64,000 nucleotides of DNA from the NCBI RefSeq assembly GCF_019649055.1, contig NW_026570240.1, forward strand, positions 310,001 to 374,000, given 5' to 3'. Position 1 is the stretch's first letter; the number at the start of each line of letters is the position of its first letter. Below are positions 7,302 through 22,261 of the stretch, one piece after another. The notes below the pieces were generated by a model. That model was not told where the DNA came from. It was given only the letters and a program-made list of their open reading frames with translations, and made no database searches. The stretch comes from Paramacrobiotus metropolitanus. Taxonomy: Eukaryota > Tardigrada > Eutardigrada > Parachela > Macrobiotidae. Position numbers and translations under genes: made by a program.

Positions 7302-10300
7302 ATGTACGGGTTAGTTATTGAGAGTATTGTGGCCTACGTGAGGAAAGTGTATGGCGATGAAAAATGGTTGGAAATTCGGCGACTGGGTAAAATTGATCAG
7401 CATTCCTTCAGTACGCATCTTATCTATCCGGAAACAACTATCCCCCGACTGGTAGAAGTCGCATCGGAACTGTTGGGCCTAACAAAAGATGAAATGCTCG
7501 TGCATTTTGGGAATTTTTTTGTGGAATTTGTCAGCCAATATGGATATGACAAAATTCTGAGGGTGTTGGGCCGACATATGCGAGATTTTCTGAATGGCCT
7601 TGATAATTTGCACGAGTGAGTCGAAATCGGCAATTTTTCCTGTTAACAGGAAAATGCAAGTTTTACACAATCTACTATACAGCTTTACTTACACAAACAT
7701 AATGTTAAAATTATTTTTTCTGCTGCCGCCGTTCATGTACTTTGTATTAATTACATATAATAATTCGTGTTGCCGTTGACAGGTATATGCGCTTCAGTTA
7801 TCCAAAGGTATGTTCACGTCTTTTGTGCACATGTTGCAGTATGTTAATATTCTCGAAACGCGTTGCAAACGGCAAGAAAACATGTAGGCTGACGAGCTTG
7901 AATTTAAGTTTCTTAACAGATAAAAACTGAGTACAACGTACAGTAGTTGGCATTTGACTTTAAAGTTGTGACACAAGATAATTGGCTTAGCAGCGGGTCC
8001 TGGATTGAGTTTCAAAACACAAGAAAATGCTGTGCGAACATTCTAATCAAATTTTCATTTCCTTCACGATAGGATTGACTGGCGTTAGTGCAAATAATTT
8101 CTTAATGCGTGTGAAATATAGATATCTCACTTTAAGAAAGCCGCGAATGCTTCGATATGTCATTATCCACGTCGCACTTAAGCCTAATTTTCTATGACCT
8201 CGATCAAATTACGTTAGCATAAAATTTTAAAGTTTTACTTCCATAATTAAAATTATTTTGACGCTGAATGTAAAAAAATTGGTATGATACAACTTTAGTT
8301 TGGAGATTAAATAAAGAAATGCATTTGTTGCGCACACTTTAGTTGTTTTAAGTATATAGCCGGCTATCGTTTTTTCCCGCTTTAGTATAATGGCGGAACA
8401 AGCGTTGTATTACGACGTTTTGCTGTTGGAATGTCGACACTATACCATCTTTCGTTGATAAAATAATAATATTATTTACCATTATAAGAAGTTGTTTTTG
8501 TCTTGACAAAAACCGGTAGCTGTCTGAGAATAAGTACGAGTACAATACTCGCATGCTGATCCACACAGCTGCATTCATATTGTGCAACGCGGGTTTTGAC
8601 AGGAAGTCGCGATGCATAAGCTATCGAAGCCTATCTCTCTGACACTGCTTTTATGCAATTCAATTAAAATAACGCCAACAGTATCATTACCCACTGGAAT
8701 ATTGTTGGAAGCCAGGGCAATTTGGCTCGCGGGAATACTTGAATATCCGTATCCGGCATTCCCGTTTACGTAGGTGAAAATATCCATGAACCCTGTGCAT
8801 GGGTTTGAAATTGCCGTTACGGACATGCCGTGCTGCTGCAGCACTTATTAATGTATTATAAGAGTCATTAACATTAATAACGAGACAACATCACGCTTTA
8901 CGAATTCAAAACGGCAACTAATTGGACAAATTTTAATTTGTTTTTTTGGGACTAATGCGACGAGCTGCTTAAATCTGCCGACAACTCAGATTTGACCCTA
9001 CATAATTTATCAGGCTTTGCCACTTTGGCAATTGTCACAACAAAGGCGTTATTAATTGCTGGAACCGTATATGTTTGATGGATTTACTTACCATTAGACT
9101 GCCATCAAGTGAGCCTATCATATAATAATTCCCTAACTTAATTTTCGCCAACAATTTAGAATCAAAATTAGCTGTGAAAACCTGCTTGTTTTGTGTTTTT
9201 TGCACCAGGTGTAGATTTGTGTTAGTAAGTACACTTATCTGCGTTCCCATTTCCCAACGGGAATATTAATGCAGCAGCATGGAAAAAAATTTTAACGTTT
9301 TTTTAGCTGAAGCCTCCGTCGTTTTTCGTTGAAAAAGAAAACGAACACGGATTGATGCTACATTATCGATCCAAAAGGAGATACGGAGGTACTTATGGCC
9401 GGTTTCTTAGTGTTTAATCCGACCTGATTAGCTCCTATACATAAATCATAATATGGAAACGTGCTCGGTGATCCATATTGGGAGCGCATTTGTTGTACGT
9501 AATTGGATATTATGCTGATCTGGCTGCTTCCGTAGGTTACGTGCGGTACGTCATGGGCCAGATTAAGAGCGTTGGCGAAATTTTTTACGGACTGGACATC
9601 GATATTGAGCTCGTGAAGGAGGAATTTTTGGGGAACACTGTCCACGTAACGATGCAGCTTCGATTCGATAATTCAGCCTTTTGACCGATGGTCACTCCGA
9701 ACAAGACATTGTTATGGAAGATATGAAGATCGACTCGGAAATGTTTTTTGAAGCCTTTCCTTTCCATGTCGTCTTCACTGAAGATATGACGATAAAGTCG
9801 GTCGGACATGGGCTTGCCAATGTGTGCCCAAATACCGAAGGTAACATACTCGTGTATTGTACTCTCGTGAACAAGTGTAAAGAGCCGCACGGCAAACGGC
9901 TTTAAATCATTTTACAGTTACAAATGTAGAAGAAAAGAAACCAGAAGTAAGTTCACATACCTTTATAATTATATAAAAATACAAGTGCGTATTATATATG
10001 TTATATAAAGGCACCTGGTGTGTCTGTATCATGGGTCCGTAACTATGTAAATTTTATGATTGCCAATGCACATTATTAGAAAGACTGGGAACAGGTGGTT
10101 ATTTCCGGTTTTTTCCATTCTGGCGGTGTTGTTCAAACATCACCGTCTGACCGTTGTAAACCTTATTTGTCCGCATGCTGAAACGTTTACAAGCATTTGG
10201 TGAAAGGAAGATTTCGATCATTGATTTATTACTGAGCAAATATGCGTAAAAATCAACTAGCCATAACGTTTCTTAATCATTGCAGGTTACGATATTAGCC

Positions 10301-13300
10301 ATATTTTCAATTTGAAACGTCCGATGGTGGAATTCACATGGGACCAAGTAAGTCCAATCGCCAGTGCAGTACCCATTCGCGTTTTTGTCTGCCGAGGCGA
10401 ATATGAATATTGCATGCCAGAACAATTCATCTGACTTTCGAAACAAAAAGAATGAATTACTAGACCTGTATGATTCATGGTGTGAAATGTGTGGCGCTGA
10501 TTAACGTATTGACGTTGATATAGTTAATGTTGCAAAATTTACGCAGTAATTAACTGTAACTTAATGGACTTTGCTATGAAGGATAATTACTAAGAACAGT
10601 TTTTAAATTAAGGCCTGAATACAATCTTTAACAAATGTGCAATGATGCGGTAGCGTTGTGTTATCAGTAAATAAAGTCAATTTTCATCACAAAAGTGGAG
10701 CACACTTTTGGGAACACACACAAAAGGGGAGCAAATCACACTTTTGGCTAGGTAGGGGTACCAGCAGTTGAACTTGAACAAATCAAACAATTTTGAAAAA
10801 AAACTTGCAAAAATAAAAAAACTAGAAATGGTATACATTATTATTACGGATAATTTTTTATCTCCGTGTATCTCCACAGATGCAAGAATCTTATTTCAAT
10901 TACTTGGGTTTCTTAATCCAGGTAATGAGTCATACCAATAATGTGTTCGAGATGGAATCTGTGGATAGCGTTCAAAAGAAACCGGATATGGATTTTTTAG
11001 CCGATGGTGATAATCGGCATCGATATGATATAGACGGTAAATTGGCTGTATCATTCTTAGAAAATTGAATTAATAATCGTTGTAACCTATTGAAATTTCA
11101 TATCTTCCAGTTGATCACATTTTCAATAACGGTTTTTTCACAGACGATATCGACCGCACTGAAAGTGATATTACCGACTTTCTCAGTGAGGGAATGAAAC
11201 TGCATCTCAAAGGACAAATGGTGAGAATTTACACCGAACTTGACCTTTTCGATCCGTCCAAATGTGCGCTGTCAGAATATAAGCACATGTGCATCGATTG
11301 CTCTTTGCTTAAGTCGAATAATTTATTGCGCAACAGCCGTACGTTCTCCTTGAGCCCGAACAAATAGTGACCTTTGTCCGCTAGATGTGGGTGCCCGAGT
11401 GGCAAGGCATGTTATTTCTTGGAACCCCCGTGTAAGCACATTTGCAATATTCATCTGTGAGCTATACCTTTAAATCATCGTCGTATTTGTAGACTGCCCA
11501 ATTTGACAGCCATGTTCGATACGGGGCTATTCATCAACGATTTGAGTTTACATGATAACTCCAGAGATCTCGTACTGGCCGGCACGCAGACTTCCGCGGA
11601 GCTGAAGCTGGCACTCGATCAGGTTGGATGTCATTACCCTTAATGTATCCAACAAAATGCAACAATAGTCTGGCTATAGGTTGCTATTTTTACCAAACGT
11701 TAGTGCAAGTCCCATAAGTGACCTAGCGTTGCCTATTGCTGCGATAATGTATATGCACCTGCAGTGGCATACTAATCGATGTCTGCGTTTTTAATGAGAA
11801 ATATTATACCTCGCTGTACACCGTCAACAGCACTAGCAGGTTTTATTATGCTTTATAAAGCCATCTAGCGACTGAAATAATAAGCAATGTACAACATGGT
11901 TCTAAACTATATAAATATATTTCTAACCATCATAATTATATGCTGGTCTTGTTTTATGCACACCTTTTTCTAGGAGCAAGTAAAGAGCAAAAAACTGGAA
12001 GAGAGCATGCGAAAATTGGGTAAGTGCGCTCAAAGCATCGTTTAGCAAAACGTACAGAGTACACTGCAAATTTTTGTGCAAATCTGTGTTAGTCATAAGG
12101 CCGTGCAAAACGCAACCTGTTTGTTGAGTGATATGTTATATCAAACGTCGTATACCGCTTCAGTAGTAGCTGTTTGTTGGGCTGTCTGATTTAATTTTGT
12201 TTCGGGCGCTGGATTGACACGAATTGGACGGTTTACGCGCTCATCTTTACCCAACTGTATAATCCCATGACAAATCTTATCGAACAATATTATCGAGATT
12301 CATGAACCTAGAGTCAATGGGATTTAATTGATTACTTCTGAGAAAAAACATTATTGATGCACAACAGAGGAAGGCTAGAGTACAATCCTGGAGCAACAGC
12401 TAAACGATCGATTTCGCATGATCGGTGAAAAATAGGTTTTGCCTTCTCGCAGCCTAAATCTAAGCATTATCAACCGCAAGTAGCTCTCATTTGCATAACT
12501 GCAAGTCTAAGATTATCCTAAAATGCTAATTAGGAATTTCATTATATACACTGCTACCGACAGGAATAATAATTTTTTTATAGCTGCACCTTTACTGATA
12601 GCACATTGTGTAGCAGGTCAACAAACTTAATTCTGAAACCCCTTGTGACATGTAGAGTGGGAAAATCTAACAGCTATATCCTATAGATGTGTTAAAATTG
12701 ATCGCGAGTTTGACTAAAATTATATAAATGATAACTCGTTAGATTACACGATGGTTAAATAAGTTCTGCTGCAACATACCAATCAAATTTCAAATGTGCT
12801 AAAACTCATAGAATGTGTATACGGAGTCATAAATTTAATTGTGCGGCAAATATCTAAATATTAAAATACATACCTGTAGGCTGTAGTATGCAGAAGCAGA
12901 TGTATTTACAATGTTTTTGCAGAAGTTAACGTCGAAAAGCATAGAAAATGCTCAATGTTTTGAAGATCTCATACCTGCTCACTTAAGGGCGGCGTCTTAC
13001 GCTTCTGTTACATTCCATCCAACTTGCCCCTTTTAATTAATAGATGAGGAAATGCGTCGCACTGATGAGCTACTCTACCAGATGATTCCGCGCACGATTG
13101 CCGACCGTTTAAGAGCGGGCGAACCCGCACTGGAAACCTGTCAGGTGGGATGCCACATTACGAGATCACGAGAGCCGTGACCTTTCCTCATTTCTGACTT
13201 CACAAGGATAACGCTTCGATGTTATTAGGTTTTCAACGATGTAACCGTCCTCTTCAGTGATGTAGTGGGTTTTACTATGATCTGCTCCCGTATCTCTCCA

Positions 13301-16300
13301 CTCCAAGTGGTCACAATGCTGAACATGATGTACAGGTGAGCAATCAACTCCATTTCTCATCGACCAGGACCTTTTCAATTTCCAAGCCGCCTGCTGCTCG
13401 CAGTGGTGGTTAAGGTTTCGTTTAATTACGCTTTCAGTCATGTAATCATAATAAATTATTGCTGATTAATTAGAGTACTAGTGGGGTTGATTAGTTGACT
13501 GCTGGCAATATGCTAAATTACCCAAGTGCTTTTGTTAAATAGCCGTAATATTAGGAGTACCGACTACCGAGTGATATACGGTTCTTTGTTTTTTAGCAAG
13601 TTTGATCAGCTGTGTTCAACAAATGATGTATATAAAGTTGGTAAGTTGCAGTGTACTGATTTTCGTACTGCCCCTGTGAGGTAATCATGAGCATCAAACT
13701 GCCACAGAGACAATCGGAGACGCCTATGTGGTTGTCTCGGGTGCACCGGAAGAAGTCACCGATCACGCGGAGAGAATTGCGGATATGGCCATTGGAATGC
13801 TGGAAACAATGCCAACACTGGTCGATCCTTCTACCGGCGCCCACCTGCAGATTCGCGTTGGTACGCCGTCAATTGCGAGGGTCATTCACTGACGCAGTAC
13901 TGCAACCGAAAACATGCTTTATATAGCTGTGCTGCTACTGACTGTGCGCGTCTGGTTTCTTATTCTGTCGTATTTTCAGGACTTAATTCCGGCGTGGTTG
14001 TCGCAGGTTAGTCGATAATAATGTATAAAGGGATATCCAAGTGGTTAACGCTAACATTTGGCGTCACACTATATATATTAATCTTCACTCCTTGAAATTT
14101 TAAAACAAATTATGTTCATGAACCGCGTTTATATTTGCTTTGGAGTCAAAAATTAAGCTTTAAATTTGAATTAGCCATTAAATCACTATTGTACAACAAA
14201 ATGTTCTCTATGCACATCTCTATGCAAGGTATTAAGTTATTAACCTTGCATATTGCACATTTGAGATGGAACGAGAAGCTTTTGTGCTTGAATTAAAATT
14301 TACACGAATGTACCTAGTACGGTACTTTTAGTAGATTACAACGGGTTTAACATTTTTAGAAGAAGGTTGTAATAAAACCTTGCTTGAGGGTTTGATGCTT
14401 GTCTTGTTCATATTATTTTTAAAAATGTCATGCAGGCATATTGTGCATAGAGAATTCTTTGATGACATTGTCCTTTCTGCGAAATCAATCAGCGTATGCG
14501 CTTTCTGTCGTTGTAGGTGTCGTGGGATTAAAGATGCCGCGCTATTGTTTGTACGTTTCAAATTATTTCACTTTCTCAAATCAAACAAAAACTGGGAGGC
14601 CTGGATGCAACAATACGTATGTGATTTTACTTTTGCATTGCATTGCAGATTCGGTGATACAGTAAATACAGCTGCAAAAATGGAATCTTCCAGTCAGGTA
14701 ACGCCAATAAAACAGTAAAAAAAACCAGTGACTCATTTATACTCGTACTATGTAGTAATAATTCTGTATTACAAAGCACAGTTTTCTAAGTTAGTGATGA
14801 AGTTGGCGCACAATTTCCGATACAACAACACAACACATTATTATACTTACAAAATAATCGTTTAGACAGCTAAATAACCCATAAAAGCTACAAATTATTG
14901 TGTAAAAAGATCGCTGCAGTACAGCAAAAGCAACCCACGCAGTAAGATACCAAAAAATCTTATGACACTGATCATGAGACGGCACCACTACAAATGCAAA
15001 ATCCAAAAAAAAGCCTCACTATACTTCTATCATTTTCTTATGCGCTATTTGCAGAGCATGAAAGTACAGATGACAGAAGCAACAATGAAGCACCTGACCG
15101 GAAACCCCAAATACGTCACCTCCCTTCGGGGGCTAGTTGATGTGAAGGTCAGCAAAAGTGTCCCGTTTAAATTTTTCTTCCTTTTCAAACTGATGCATGC
15201 ATATGGCACGAGCTGTCAGTGCAGCTATTCTAATCACATGGTAAATCACATTCTTGCCGCAGGACAAAGGGAAAATGAATACATACTGGTTGGGTAAGAG
15301 CGACGATTACGAGTCGCTGCGGATAATTAGAAAGATCGCCGTTGCACCGCCGCCCGGACGGATACGCGCGGCAACCATGAGCCGACCGCCTCCGCCGAAG
15401 CGCAATTCTCTGAGCAAATCTAACAATGCTGAAGCGTCGAAAAGCCTGAAACGCCTGCCGCAGCAGCGAATCCGGCCTCGCCGAAACCAGTGCCTGCTCC
15501 ATCCCCTTCCAAGGCCGCGAACGCCAAAGAAGAGGAAAAGCATAGGAGGTCCTCCTTGGCTAAAAGTGATTCCGGTTATGCTAACTCCGTCAAATCCGAT
15601 CTTCCCACCGATAAAGATCTTCCACGTGATGCTGATAAGCAGAAAGAGCGCAAGCAAACCGGTGTGGGCAATGCTTCCCGTACGCCCAAAACCGGTGCGA
15701 ACACGGTCCCGCCCCCTCCTTCCGCCATCCAATCGCAGTTAAGTCCCAACACCAGCAGCAAATATTCGTTTCCGATTAAGCCACGTTTCACCGAACCGAA
15801 GGACCTTTCCTTAGCTAACAGTGATGTCGATTCGGCATCGGAACTCGATTCCGATGACAGTCGCAGAAATTCCCGACAGGATATAAAGCAAGCACCGACC
15901 AATAGTGAAAAACCGCCAGCGAATCAGCCTATTGACCGGTCACCGCAAACCCCGCCGGCGAAAGAAACCATCAAGAAACCCAATAACAGTCTCTCCAATG
16001 GGATATCTGATTTTCGGGAATGGAAGCGCTTGATCCAAATTTCGCTCCACGCCGACCGCCACCCACGAAGCAGTCATCGATGGGAAAGCGCGGAGGTCGG
16101 AAAGAGTCGATTGAATCGATGGACTCGCAAAACCTCTCTCCGTTCGATAAACGACCGGCCCCGGTGTTCGACTTCGAATTACATCCGGAGATACCTGTCG
16201 CTGAAAAAAAGAAGCCACCGCAATCTCCAGCAAAGTTCAATAACGCGGTTATCGATACTAAACAAAAGGAAACTAATTCTGCATTGAAATCAACGATAAA

Positions 16301-17107
16301 AAATGGCGAGCCCTTGTCACCACAAGAAAAGGTCTCGCCGAAACCCCCGAACCTGTGCAACTACAGTTGAGCAGGAAAGGCGTTAGACTATCCGAACCGG
16401 TCGAGACAACTGTCAATGGTGTCGCAGAGACCGAGAAAAACGGGCTGGAAAGAAGAAGCTCTGAAAACAGCAGTACGGAATCGAAGGTCATCAGCCGGCC
16501 GAAAGACGAGCTAAAGGTCAAACCCAAGGCACCGCTAAAGCGTAGCCCGTCACCGCGGTTAATTGAACAGAGTCCAAGAAAGACTGCGGAAGTGGAGATC
16601 ATTAAGCAGTCGTTCGATGCACCTGATCCCGCACTGACTGAGCCGGCAAAGGCTGTCGTTACCGCCACGACTGCCTCGCAGACGTCACATCCAGATTTGC
16701 GAGCCGGTTTACCGCGATCAGCCATGACAACAAGCATCGGCACCGACGCCCAACCGGAACTGCTGCCAGTGGTTAAGGAAGAAAAAACGACGGCCAGCGC
16801 CGATAAGGAGAAAGAAGCGCTGTCCAATGGCAATAAGGAAATGAACAATTTAGCCGTTCCAGTGCAGCCTGATCAGCCGTCAGTTAATTCTTTTGATGCG
16901 GCGGTCGACGACTTAATCAGCAATGAATTCCACAGTTTCAAGGGCAAGAAAGCGGCCAAAGTGTCGATTAACGGTAAAACCGGCAAAGATGGGTCGTCCG
17001 AAAAAATCAACGGTCGACGGGATACTGCGACTGGAAAAGCTGTGGTCATAAATGAAACAGAAACGCAACGCCGATCCATACGGAGCTGCGCCTGCGTTAT
17101 CAGTTAA
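7302..17107 (+). CDS. Gyc88E-like: atypical soluble guanylyl cyclase (Gyc-88E / GCY-31-35 type), CaaX-terminated
   Basis: Makes cGMP from GTP; relatives of this type bind O2 or NO through heme and work as homodimers or with a partner. Nineteen exons: 7302-7615, 7783-7807, 9307-9388, 9536-9840, 10286-10347, 10880-11036, 11144-11220, 11385-11431, 11493-11622, 11974-12019, 13044-13144, 13229-13335, 13597-13640, 13708-13860, 13980-14006, 14517-14550, 14649-14697, 15055-15147, 15263-17107. About 1233 residues once four one-base slips are allowed for (runs at 9679, 15440, 16011, 16344). Order: H-NOX with heme-ligand His in LDNLHEYM and the Y.S.R motif (YRSKR); HNOBA/PAS region; signalling helix ([16 protein letters not shown]); cyclase domain with both metal aspartates ([20 protein letters not shown]) and the guanine-binding Glu and Cys. 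The usual catalytic Arg of the NxAxRME motif is Lys (NTAAKME). The tail, about 600 residues, is Ser/Pro/Lys-rich and ends CACVIS, a prenylation box. Confidence 0.93.
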
Positions 17108-17874
17108 AGGAGGAAATTATACAAAGAAAGCACACGGTATTCTTCCATTTACATACAAGTGGCGGAAAGTTTTTCCTGAGTAACTGCTGCAGTAAAGAAC
17201 TGCAGAATAATAATTGCCCGATTTAATTATCCATCCGTACTACAGACACTGGCTAACGTACAAGATTACAAGTACTGTATCCGATAAGATTTACAGAGTA
17301 TCTTTTAGTTAACACAAGCTGTTTATCCACACAACGCTGGCGATCTCAGAATTGCTTATTTTCATGCAGATTTGATTACTTAATTTTGCCGAATTATCTG
17401 GGATATTCGTGGGTCATGAATATTTCATAACCAGCGAACTATAGACTATTAACAATTATGCTCGTTATTAAAGTGCAAAAACATGGTAAAAAGAGGTTGC
17501 AAATTAATTAACGTAGGTGTTAAAATTTGAACTAGCAGTGTGCAGTTGTGACTTATGTTTTGGTCGTTGTTACTTGTGTCTTGTAGTATGTTTAATAAGT
17601 TCATAACAAACACAGACACCGAATCCATTTTTTATAAGATACAGGTAGCTCCCGCCCTGATGGTTAAATTCGTACAAGACGATTCTTTCTTCTATTGTAA
17701 ATGCGAATTTGTTTTACCTTTATAGAGATCCTCACGCTCTGGAAGTTAATCCTTCTAACCACCTTAACCTTGACGGAACTAACTCGAAACAACGAAAATC
17801 AATAATAATAATAATAATATATAAATCACCAAACCTAGTGCAGGCGTATCGATATGTCTACGGTTACACTTTTG

Positions 17875-17880
17875 AATAAA
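17875..17880 (+). other. candidate polyadenylation signal (AATAAA)
   Basis: AATAAA about 770 bases after the guanylyl cyclase stop, in AT-rich sequence and followed by more A-rich words. It would give a 0.8 kb 3' UTR. Position and strand fit, but the word is common in such sequence. Confidence 0.35.
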
Positions 17881-18070
17881 AACATTAAAATAAACTCCAT
17901 CCAAAGTCGATTGTGTTCCTAAATCACGGCATCTGCTGATAGATGATCATAATAACTGTGCGAAAAAAAAGCTCCAACTACTTGTTTTGCTGTATGGAAC
18001 AATTATAAGAAAATGTATGCTGTCATACGTATAACTTTGCCGCACATGGCATTGGTGGCGAGTATGATGA

Positions 18071-20465: not shown

Positions 20466-22261
20466 ATGGTAATACCAACAGCTCCATGGATTTCACGGAT
20501 GACCTTTCTGGGAGCCCTGGTGATGTGCGTAACATATCAAGGTAAGCTTAGATAAATTTTTATCGAAGACAACTATATAGAAGCACTTAGTTATTTTCGA
20601 TCCTCACCTTCTTATATGGGAATTAATGTTTATGTGAAATCATCCAGCTGTAGCGAAAGCCGGCACTTAGTTCTTTGTAAGTTGGGATGCTTTTGGCATA
20701 CCTAAGTGAATATTGGGTTAAATAACGTGGAGTTGCCGAATTACAACTATATATCAAAGCCCGTACTGAGATATTAAATGGTATGCCGGTGCAATGTGGT
20801 GATTTTAGCCAGTTAACCTTTGCACAGCATTTTATACTGTATTAAGCACGAAGGAACTGCGCTGTGAGGTTTCTCTGACAAACGGTTGTAAATATAAAAG
20901 CAGTTGTATGTAAAGCTCTAATAGATGTTAACTTTGATCTTCTTTCCGCACTTTCGCTTAGCTCTTGGGAAAAATGCAGTCCCAAAAGAGAACCAGCGAT
21001 CAGTCTTTGCCATTACAGTGGAAAGCCATTGCTAACACATTTCGAAATTATATTCGAAATTTAGCCCACATTTTGTATTTGATCCATTACAAGTATCAAC
21101 AAAAAGTGCACATAAACAATACTTTTTGAACAACTTGTCCAAACCATTATGGGTAATTAGTATGTCTGTAGGTTAAATGATACACTATAAACACGGCTCA
21201 GTATTTGTTTAGCAGTTAATACTGCATGTAGATTTACTTCATTTGCGTAAATGGAAACTAACAAAATATTTATTTATCGGAGAAAGAAAGCGTATGGCGC
21301 AAAAGCAAGGAAAAAGTATGATTTTGTAAGAATCAACAATTCAGATAGAAGTATCGAAAAAGACGAGCACTGTCGCTATATCCGGGTTTAATGTTTATGC
21401 AGTATTCACATACTTCGTTTTAACCAACATTATCTGAAAAGTGTAAGATTATGTAATAACGCACATCGCCTTATAATTACTCGAGCTCTATTGTATGTGA
21501 CATAGGTAGTGTGTGCCTTTTATTCCATCTTCAGAGTTTATATGGAAAATGAATACAGTGTTTATGTTTGGCAACAGCCACATGCGTGCTTTAATTAATC
21601 ATTAATGGCAGAAATGCTGCAGATTTGCTCTCGCCTAGATAATTCGGCTTTAGCTGGACTACACGCAACAGTATAAATAACTACCGATGTACCAAAACAT
21701 TTCTCCGATGTCGGTTGTGGAATTATTTCAACGCAGCAATTTCCTTTTGTGTTTCTAGTCAGTCCTGCCCTCGGTCAGCTGGAAATGGATTACGACGGTG
21801 ACCTCGCGCGGGACGAAGAAGCACGGGAATTCATGATACCCCATCCGCGTCTAGGCCGCTACATGGATTACGCTGTTCTGAAGTTTCTGGCCAATTACTT
21901 GAAAGACAGTTACGCGCTTAATGATATGGTCCCCGCTGAGGTCAAAATGGAGCCGCCTCCCGATGTGCTGCTGCAGCGCGAACTAAGGGATATGAAGGGC
22001 AAAGGCTACGGCATTCCCATTCCTCGTGTGGGGAAGCGATCAGCCACGGAAACTGTCGATCTTCCGCCGGCTAGGTCGGAAAGTAACGCCGATGTGCGCA
22101 ATATTCTGGCCGCTCTGCATCAGCTGGATCATAAGCGGACGCAACGACAGCAGCCATCTGTGCGATCCATCGGATCGCTGTTTAAGCCACGGGTGGGACG
22201 TGGCAGTTTAGCTCCTCATAAGTACAAGGCCAACTGGGCACCGGTGCCTCGCGTGGGATAA
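20466..22261 (+). CDS. Capa-like: CAPA/pyrokinin-like neuropeptide precursor
   Basis: Two exons, 20466-20541 and 21759-22261 (192 residues). Exon 1 encodes a secretory signal peptide (hydrophobic core MTFLGALVMCV) and the junction restores Val before SPALGQ, a likely signal-peptidase site. Four amidation-ready peptides can be read: one ending IPHPRLG before Arg, one ending YGIPIPRVG before Lys-Arg, one ending SLFKPRVG before Arg, and one ending NWAPVPRVG at the very C-terminus. After cleavage and glycine-directed amidation these give PRL-amide and PRV-amide peptides, the signatures of pyrokinin and CAPA/periviscerokinin peptides, which in arthropods act on GPCRs controlling Malpighian tubules, visceral muscle and related targets. 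The region between peptides is poorly conserved spacer. Strong call on family; the exact cleavage points are predicted. Confidence 0.88.

What the first reader, a model, noticed from the sequence alone, without database searches (positions are those of the whole stretch)
16380..17107. Guanylyl cyclase ends in a CaaX prenylation box with a neighbouring cysteine
The last codons of the long tail read [12 protein letters not shown] then stop. CVIS fits the CaaX rule, with Ser at X favouring farnesyltransferase; the Cys two residues before could be palmitoylated, and basic residues precede it, as in H/N-Ras tails. Soluble guanylyl cyclases are named for being cytosolic, and I know of no Gyc-88E relative described with a CaaX end. 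It would tether an O2/NO-sensing cyclase to membranes. The final frame (16355-17107) is open for 250 codons, so the ending does not depend on a repaired slip.
Basis: partly seen in the sequence, partly recalled or inferred. Interest (0 to 1): 0.85.

Follow-up and report, generated by a model that had tools for sequence, protein, structure and literature searches.

The report
Soluble guanylyl cyclase with CaaX end
A gas-sensing cyclase gene, probably from a tardigrade, ends in the same four letters that mark transducin for a greasy farnesyl anchor, so this supposedly free-floating enzyme may sit on membranes; one mammalian relative is already reported to carry a signal of this kind, and no experiment has been done here.

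Summary
The last frame (16277-17107) ends S-C-A-C-V-I-S-stop at 17105-17107. The gene is an H-NOX/HNOBA/cyclase gene, closest among solved structures to sGC beta-1, without the two cysteines tied to NO sensitivity. CVIS is the listed 15-carbon box of transducin gamma 1. A strict farnesyl-type box precedes 23 of 10,194 stops in the DNA held here, C-x-box 2. The four tail pieces hold two Cys in 609 residues, both in the last six. Prenyltransferase and ICMT families have matches.

Cautions. The tail needs three homopolymer slips, and two further runs (17001, 17035) lie in the last 107 bases. Codon signal is clear to about 17023 and neutral for the last 27 codons; a missed slip at 17035, giving a stop at 17053-17055, is not excluded. 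No ortholog from another species could be reached; 0 of 7 other cyclase ends read in this genome has Cys at -4.

The novelty claim is too strong: sGC beta-2 is reported to carry a C-terminal isoprenylation sequence. Best reading: a farnesylated, perhaps palmitoylated atypical sGC, a new variant of a known kind.

The parts
7302..7615 (+). exon 1, H-NOX (HNOB) with proximal His aligned to the beta-1 heme His
   Evidence: Pfam HNOB 5e-27; alignment to sGC beta-1; donor GTGAGT
7783..7807 (+). small exon (EYMRFSYPK) of H-NOX
   Evidence: AG/GT borders and reading frame
9307..9388 (+). exon with the YxSxR heme motif (LHYRSKRR)
9536..9840 (+). end of H-NOX and start of HNOBA, with an inferred one-base slip at the T run at 9671
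   Evidence: Pfam HNOBA 9.4e-11
11493..11622 (+). HNOBA exon (borders read by eye)
   Evidence: Pfam HNOBA 3.6e-12
13043..15147 (+). cyclase domain exons with their introns (outer borders approximate)
   Evidence: Pfam Guanylate_cyc 7.1e-12 for one exon; alignment
15263..17107 (+). last exon: end of cyclase domain and a long low-complexity tail, read in four frames across three inferred homopolymer slips (15440, 16011, 16344)
17087..17089 (+). Cys at -6, possible palmitoylation site
   Evidence: the modification is inferred
17093..17104 (+). CVIS, CaaX box
17105..17107 (+). stop TAA
17875..17880 (+). AATAAA, possible polyadenylation signal about 770 bases after the stop (ATTAAA also at 17467, 17884 and 18362)

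Best explanation
The gene codes for an atypical, beta-like soluble guanylyl cyclase (H-NOX, HNOBA, catalytic domain) with a long low-complexity tail that ends in a farnesylation box. Farnesyltransferase would attach a farnesyl group to the Cys of CVIS, VIS would be cleaved off and the end methylated; the Cys two residues earlier, in a setting like the end of H-Ras (its letters outside the box are recalled), could be palmitoylated. The flexible tail would then act as a tether that keeps the cyclase near a membrane, so that its cGMP is made close to its targets. Shown: the coding sequence as assembled, the domains, the box, matches to prenyltransferase and ICMT families. Inferred: prenylation, palmitoylation, membrane location and function.
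For: The box is in the sequence. CVIS is the listed 15-carbon box of GNGT1, and CVIS was among the boxes built for an Arabidopsis farnesyltransferase study in which terminal Ser is appreciably farnesylated. A strict box precedes 23 of 10,194 stops and C-x-box 2 of 10,194. Two Cys in the 609 tail residues counted, at -6 and -4. Prenyltransferase beta-type matches on three contigs, PPTA repeats on two, one partial ICMT match. After the donor-like site at 16473 no further GT[AG]AG, GTATG or GTACG lies before the stop. An isoprenylation sequence is reported for sGC beta-2.
Against: The last 27 codons have a neutral codon score (-0.47 and -1.8), and against off-frame codons the last 33 score low, so they may be out of frame. 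0 of 7 other cyclase ends that could be read in this genome has Cys at -4 (unspliced readings; nine loci gave no end). No ortholog could be compared. ICMT-type matches also ring in 5 of 14 prokaryote controls, and the protease that removes the last three residues was not searched for.
Confidence: 0.6

Rival explanations
1. The end is read correctly but CVIS is a chance match: the protein is cytosolic and not prenylated.
Against: The exact box is a listed farnesyl substrate; a second Cys at -6 in a tail with no other Cys in the pieces counted.
Confidence: 0.22
2. A further missed slip or another 3' end: the true protein ends elsewhere, for example at the TGA at 17053-17055 after a slip in the A4 run at 17035.
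For: Three of 24 runs of four or more bases in the tail appear slipped; the likely assembly is Nanopore R9.4 based. Codon scores do not separate this from the plain reading (3.72 against 3.44). The last 34 codons score -0.1, between the 1st and 5th percentile of coding stretches and between the 95th and 99th of non-coding ones; against off-frame codons another frame, which has a stop, scores 4.26 to -2.91 for the read frame. Sudden Cys after a tail without Cys also fits an off-frame reading.
Against: A slip at the A6 run is disfavoured (1.56 against 3.44); no run of four or more lies between 17038 and the stop; by the rate an off-frame end would give a strict box about 0.23% of the time.
Confidence: 0.15
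3. The gene is a decaying pseudogene, so the end has no function.
For: Four apparent one-base slips in the gene.
Against: All four are apparent losses at runs of four or five, a usual long-read error; the domains and the borders checked are otherwise intact, and codon preference is positive across the last frame up to 17023.
Confidence: 0.03

Closest known systems
Soluble guanylyl cyclase beta-2 (GUCY1B2)
   Same: H-NOX cyclase of the beta type reported to have a C-terminal extension for isoprenylation or carboxymethylation (PMC8200204, passage); the letters CVVL are recalled
   Different: Its box as recalled ends in Leu (geranylgeranyl type); the extension is 86 residues rather than about 600; a 2006 tree puts beta-2 beside a Caenorhabditis-specific clade and Gyc-88E in another group (PMC1435932 section 8)
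Gyc-88E / MsGC-beta3 / GCY-31 and GCY-33 (atypical sGC)
   Same: beta-like; the two NO-sensitivity cysteines are missing, as stated for MsGC-beta3 (alignment); both metal Asp motifs present; long tails in the group are recalled
   Different: CaaX end (no ortholog tail could be read here); the catalytic N-x-x-x-R reads N-T-A-A-K
H-Ras / transducin gamma C-termini
   Same: CVIS is identical to the GNGT1 box and close to HRAS CVLS; Cys two residues before the box as in H-Ras (recalled)
   Different: Unrelated proteins: a shared signal, not shared descent

Membership tests
Soluble guanylyl cyclase (H-NOX type) | HNOB, HNOBA and class III cyclase domains in one chain with proximal heme His | tested here: met
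   Pfam on separate exons; spliced reading aligned to 6jt0_B (beta-1), E 3.7e-93, heme His aligned
Atypical sGC (Gyc-88E, MsGC-beta3) | Lack of the two Cys tied to NO sensitivity | tested here: met
   The positions aligned with beta-1 C78 and C214 (numbers recalled) read V and F; feature of MsGC-beta3 from PMC1435932 section 8
Atypical sGC (Gyc-88E, MsGC-beta3) | Catalytic residues for a homodimer: two metal Asp, base-recognition Glu and Cys, Asn and Arg | tested here: inconclusive
   FSDVVGF, VETIGDAY, PRYC and VNTAA present, but the Arg position is Lys; motif roles recalled
Atypical sGC (Gyc-88E, MsGC-beta3) | Clustering with Gyc-88E in a tree | not tested
   No named invertebrate atypical sequences were at hand
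CaaX prenylated proteins | C-a-a-X at the very C-terminus with accepted a2 and X residues | tested here: met
   CVIS; same box as GNGT1; holds if the last frame is right
CaaX prenylated proteins | Prenyl group on the protein in the cell | not testable with these tools
   needs an experiment
sGC beta-2 orthologs | Descent from the beta-2 lineage | not tested
   No beta-2 sequence was compared; the published tree separates beta-2 from Gyc-88E

The most novel reading that the evidence does not exclude
An O2-sensing atypical sGC has gained an H-Ras-like double-lipid end (farnesyl plus a palmitoylatable, possibly redox- or NO-reactive Cys) on a tether of about 600 residues, making it a reversibly membrane-bound gas sensor, independently of the CaaX box of vertebrate beta-2.
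Probability: 0.25. Interest if true: 0.55.

Novelty: new variant of a known kind. Interest (0 to 1): 0.4.

Why it matters
If true, an atypical sGC would be a lipid-anchored enzyme rather than a free cytosolic one, which would place O2- or NO-dependent cGMP at a membrane, much as lipid anchors place transducin in photoreceptors. It can be tested cheaply with one point mutant. The value is limited by the beta-2 precedent and by the lack of any relative to show conservation.

Tried and rejected
Second copy of the tail in the own genome: one match only, itself. Relatives of the tail in genome contigs and viral contigs: 114 and 27 pattern hits, none confirmed; these collections are prokaryotic and viral, so this says little. 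Pfam on tail stretches: no family (two, two). The last 23 residues against PDB chains: no match. Tandem repeats at 15000-18000: none.

An intron from the donor-like GTAAG at 15294 into frame B was considered; it would remove the first slip. I read 15294-15469 as coding because it is 58.5% G+C against 33-37% in five introns of this gene. I first thought that the C20 paralog splices at the matching place; its DNA shows no GT there, so I dropped that argument. The C-terminus is the same either way.

Ends of other cyclase genes as a control: of 29 rows that a loose motif found I kept the 7 that read GKG...[YF]W (L001, L010, L011, L012, L013, L014, L017) and dropped 22 as chance, one of which (L014, 6283) ends CRWT. 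None of the 7 has Cys at -4. For L001 the frame ends ILGKSA; a 676-residue ORF 2.2 kb further on, ending YREFYEGI, may or may not belong to it. L003-L009, L015 and L016 gave no readable end.

Codon tests: two training segments (L007, L008) were in the wrong frame; they were re-framed for and left out. Training includes parts of this tail, and its reference distribution is not held out.

Literature searches for a CaaX or prenyl signal on a soluble cyclase (and 18 for Gyc-88E) gave the beta-2 statement and, in what I saw, no invertebrate case. I saw passages of six papers (PMC8277472, PMC8200204, PMC1435932 with one full section, PMC2576301, PMC3017772, PMC7674641); the rest only as listings, and two that hold both GUCY1B2 and isoprenyl were not opened. 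PMC1435932 and PMC2576301 hold no word beginning with isoprenyl or prenyl. Most subscription papers are not in the library.

Full report
What is there. The window lies in G000:C20:310001-374000 of a 169,799,020-base, 533-contig genome. Size and the length of contig C1 (4,484,719 bases) are close to, not equal to, the published Paramacrobiotus sp. TYO assembly (170,483,395 bases, longest scaffold 4,484,941, 684 scaffolds; PMC8277472, passages). That this strain is P. metropolitanus is recalled. I take the source as probable, not shown. That assembly used Nanopore R9.4 reads with Illumina polishing.

The gene. Exons from 7302 onward carry HNOB, HNOBA and guanylate cyclase domains. A protein spliced by eye from these exons aligns over its length with sGC beta-1 (6jt0_B, 3.7e-93, 316.5 bits), better than with alpha-1 (6jt0_A, 226.4 bits). 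The proximal heme His and the YxSxR motif are kept. The two positions aligned with the beta-1 cysteines tied to NO sensitivity (identified from memory) are V and F; MsGC-beta3 is described as lacking both (PMC1435932 section 8). Both metal Asp motifs are present; the Arg after VNTAx is Lys. The label Gyc-88E-like is therefore reasonable, but no tree was made.

The tail and its end. The last exon begins at 15263 and is read in four frames, with changes at the homopolymers 15440, 16011 and 16344; a further slip lies at 9671. These slips are inferred from the frames, not from reads. All four would need one more base than the assembly has, at runs of four or five, as expected of the sequencing method. 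The last frame runs to 17107 and ends SCACVIS. The tail pieces of 59, 188 and 110 residues have no Cys; the last piece, 252 residues, has two, at -6 and -4.

Is the end read in the right frame? A codon score trained on 2,519 codons against introns and 3' flank of this gene is positive in each 15-codon step of the last frame up to 17023, then -0.47 and -1.8 for the last 27 codons. Coding stretches of 34 codons average 9.7 with a spread of 5.5 (1st and 5th percentile -3.1 and 0.7), non-coding ones -9.4 with 5.0 (95th and 99th percentile -2.1 and 0.6); the last 34 codons score -0.1, so this region looks like neither. The training set includes part of the tail itself. Against off-frame codons the last 33 codons of the frame score -2.91, and another frame, which has a stop, scores 4.26; in that test the true frame wins 83% of 242 known windows. 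A slip at A6 (17001) would be worse than no slip (1.56 against 3.44); a slip at A4 (17035) would be equal (3.72) and would meet a TGA at 17053-17055. Three of 24 runs in the tail appear slipped, so I put a missed slip or another end at about 15%. No run of four or more lies between 17038 and the stop. After the donor-like site at 16473 no extended donor of three simple types lies before the stop, and an AATAAA lies at 17875.

Is the box more than chance? A strict farnesyl-type box precedes 23 of 10,194 stops in six frames of the window and 17 loci, and C-x-box 2 of 10,194, this one included in both. CVIS is listed as the 15-carbon box of transducin gamma 1, an ICMT substrate (PMC7674641, passage), and CVIS was one of the boxes built for an Arabidopsis study whose farnesyltransferase accepts terminal Ser (PMC3017772, passages). 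Prenyltransferase beta-type domains match on contigs C5, C45 and C18, PPTA repeats on C1 and C100, and one partial ICMT match lies on C45, as expected of an animal. ICMT-type matches also occur in 5 of the 14 prokaryote controls, so that match alone is weak. The CaaX protease was not searched for.

Relatives. The tail has no second copy in the genome. A paralog on the same contig (C20, H-NOX exon at 836,290-836,613, minus strand) has a frame that ends ILGKSA just after the cyclase domain. A 676-residue ORF without Cys lies 2.2 kb further on (C20:827,362-829,392) and ends YREFYEGI; whether it is spliced to the paralog is open. Neither end is a CaaX box. Six more cyclase ends could be read; none has Cys at -4 (unspliced readings, nine loci gave no end). 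So the box is a feature of one gene so far.

Known context. sGC beta-2 is reported to carry an 86-residue extension for isoprenylation or carboxymethylation (PMC8200204, passage); the letters CVVL are recalled. In one tree beta-2 is sister to a Caenorhabditis-specific clade, and Gyc-88E lies in another group. The finding is therefore a new variant of a known kind: a farnesyl-type box, perhaps with a second lipid site, on an atypical cyclase with a long tail.

Verdict. Confirmed as sequence, probable as a prenylation signal (0.6), unproven as biology. Interest 0.4.

Noticed in passing
window 21677-22261 (+): ORF with several peptides ending PRVG or PRLG, some before basic residues (IPHPRLGR, GYGIPIPRVGKR, SLFKPRVGR, ANWAPVPRVG), like a pyrokinin/CAPA-type neuropeptide precursor (family by recall).
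   Followed up: no
window 14640-14696: In the cyclase domain the transition-state Arg position reads Lys (VNTAAKMES), as recalled for alpha subunits, while the C20 paralog keeps Arg (VNTASRMQS); this may lower homodimer activity.
   Followed up: partly
G000, whole genome: 200 exon matches to the cyclase family PF00211, a lower bound with 150 of 849 candidates scored, suggesting a large guanylyl cyclase expansion; 22 matches to HNOB.
   Followed up: no
L003 and L004 (C16:1352000-1368000): Tandem pair of H-NOX cyclases whose H-NOX resembles the window gene (MYGILLESIV) but whose cyclase motif reads FGQTVATA, so they may be catalytically dead.
   Followed up: partly
window 15294: A donor-like GTAAG lies just after the end of the cyclase domain; possible alternative intron into frame B that would remove the first slip.
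   Followed up: partly
L001 3363-5393 (-): A 676-residue ORF without Cys, rich in Pro, Gln, Ser and Asp, 2.2 kb after the paralog's cyclase domain; a second long tail or a separate gene.
   Followed up: partly
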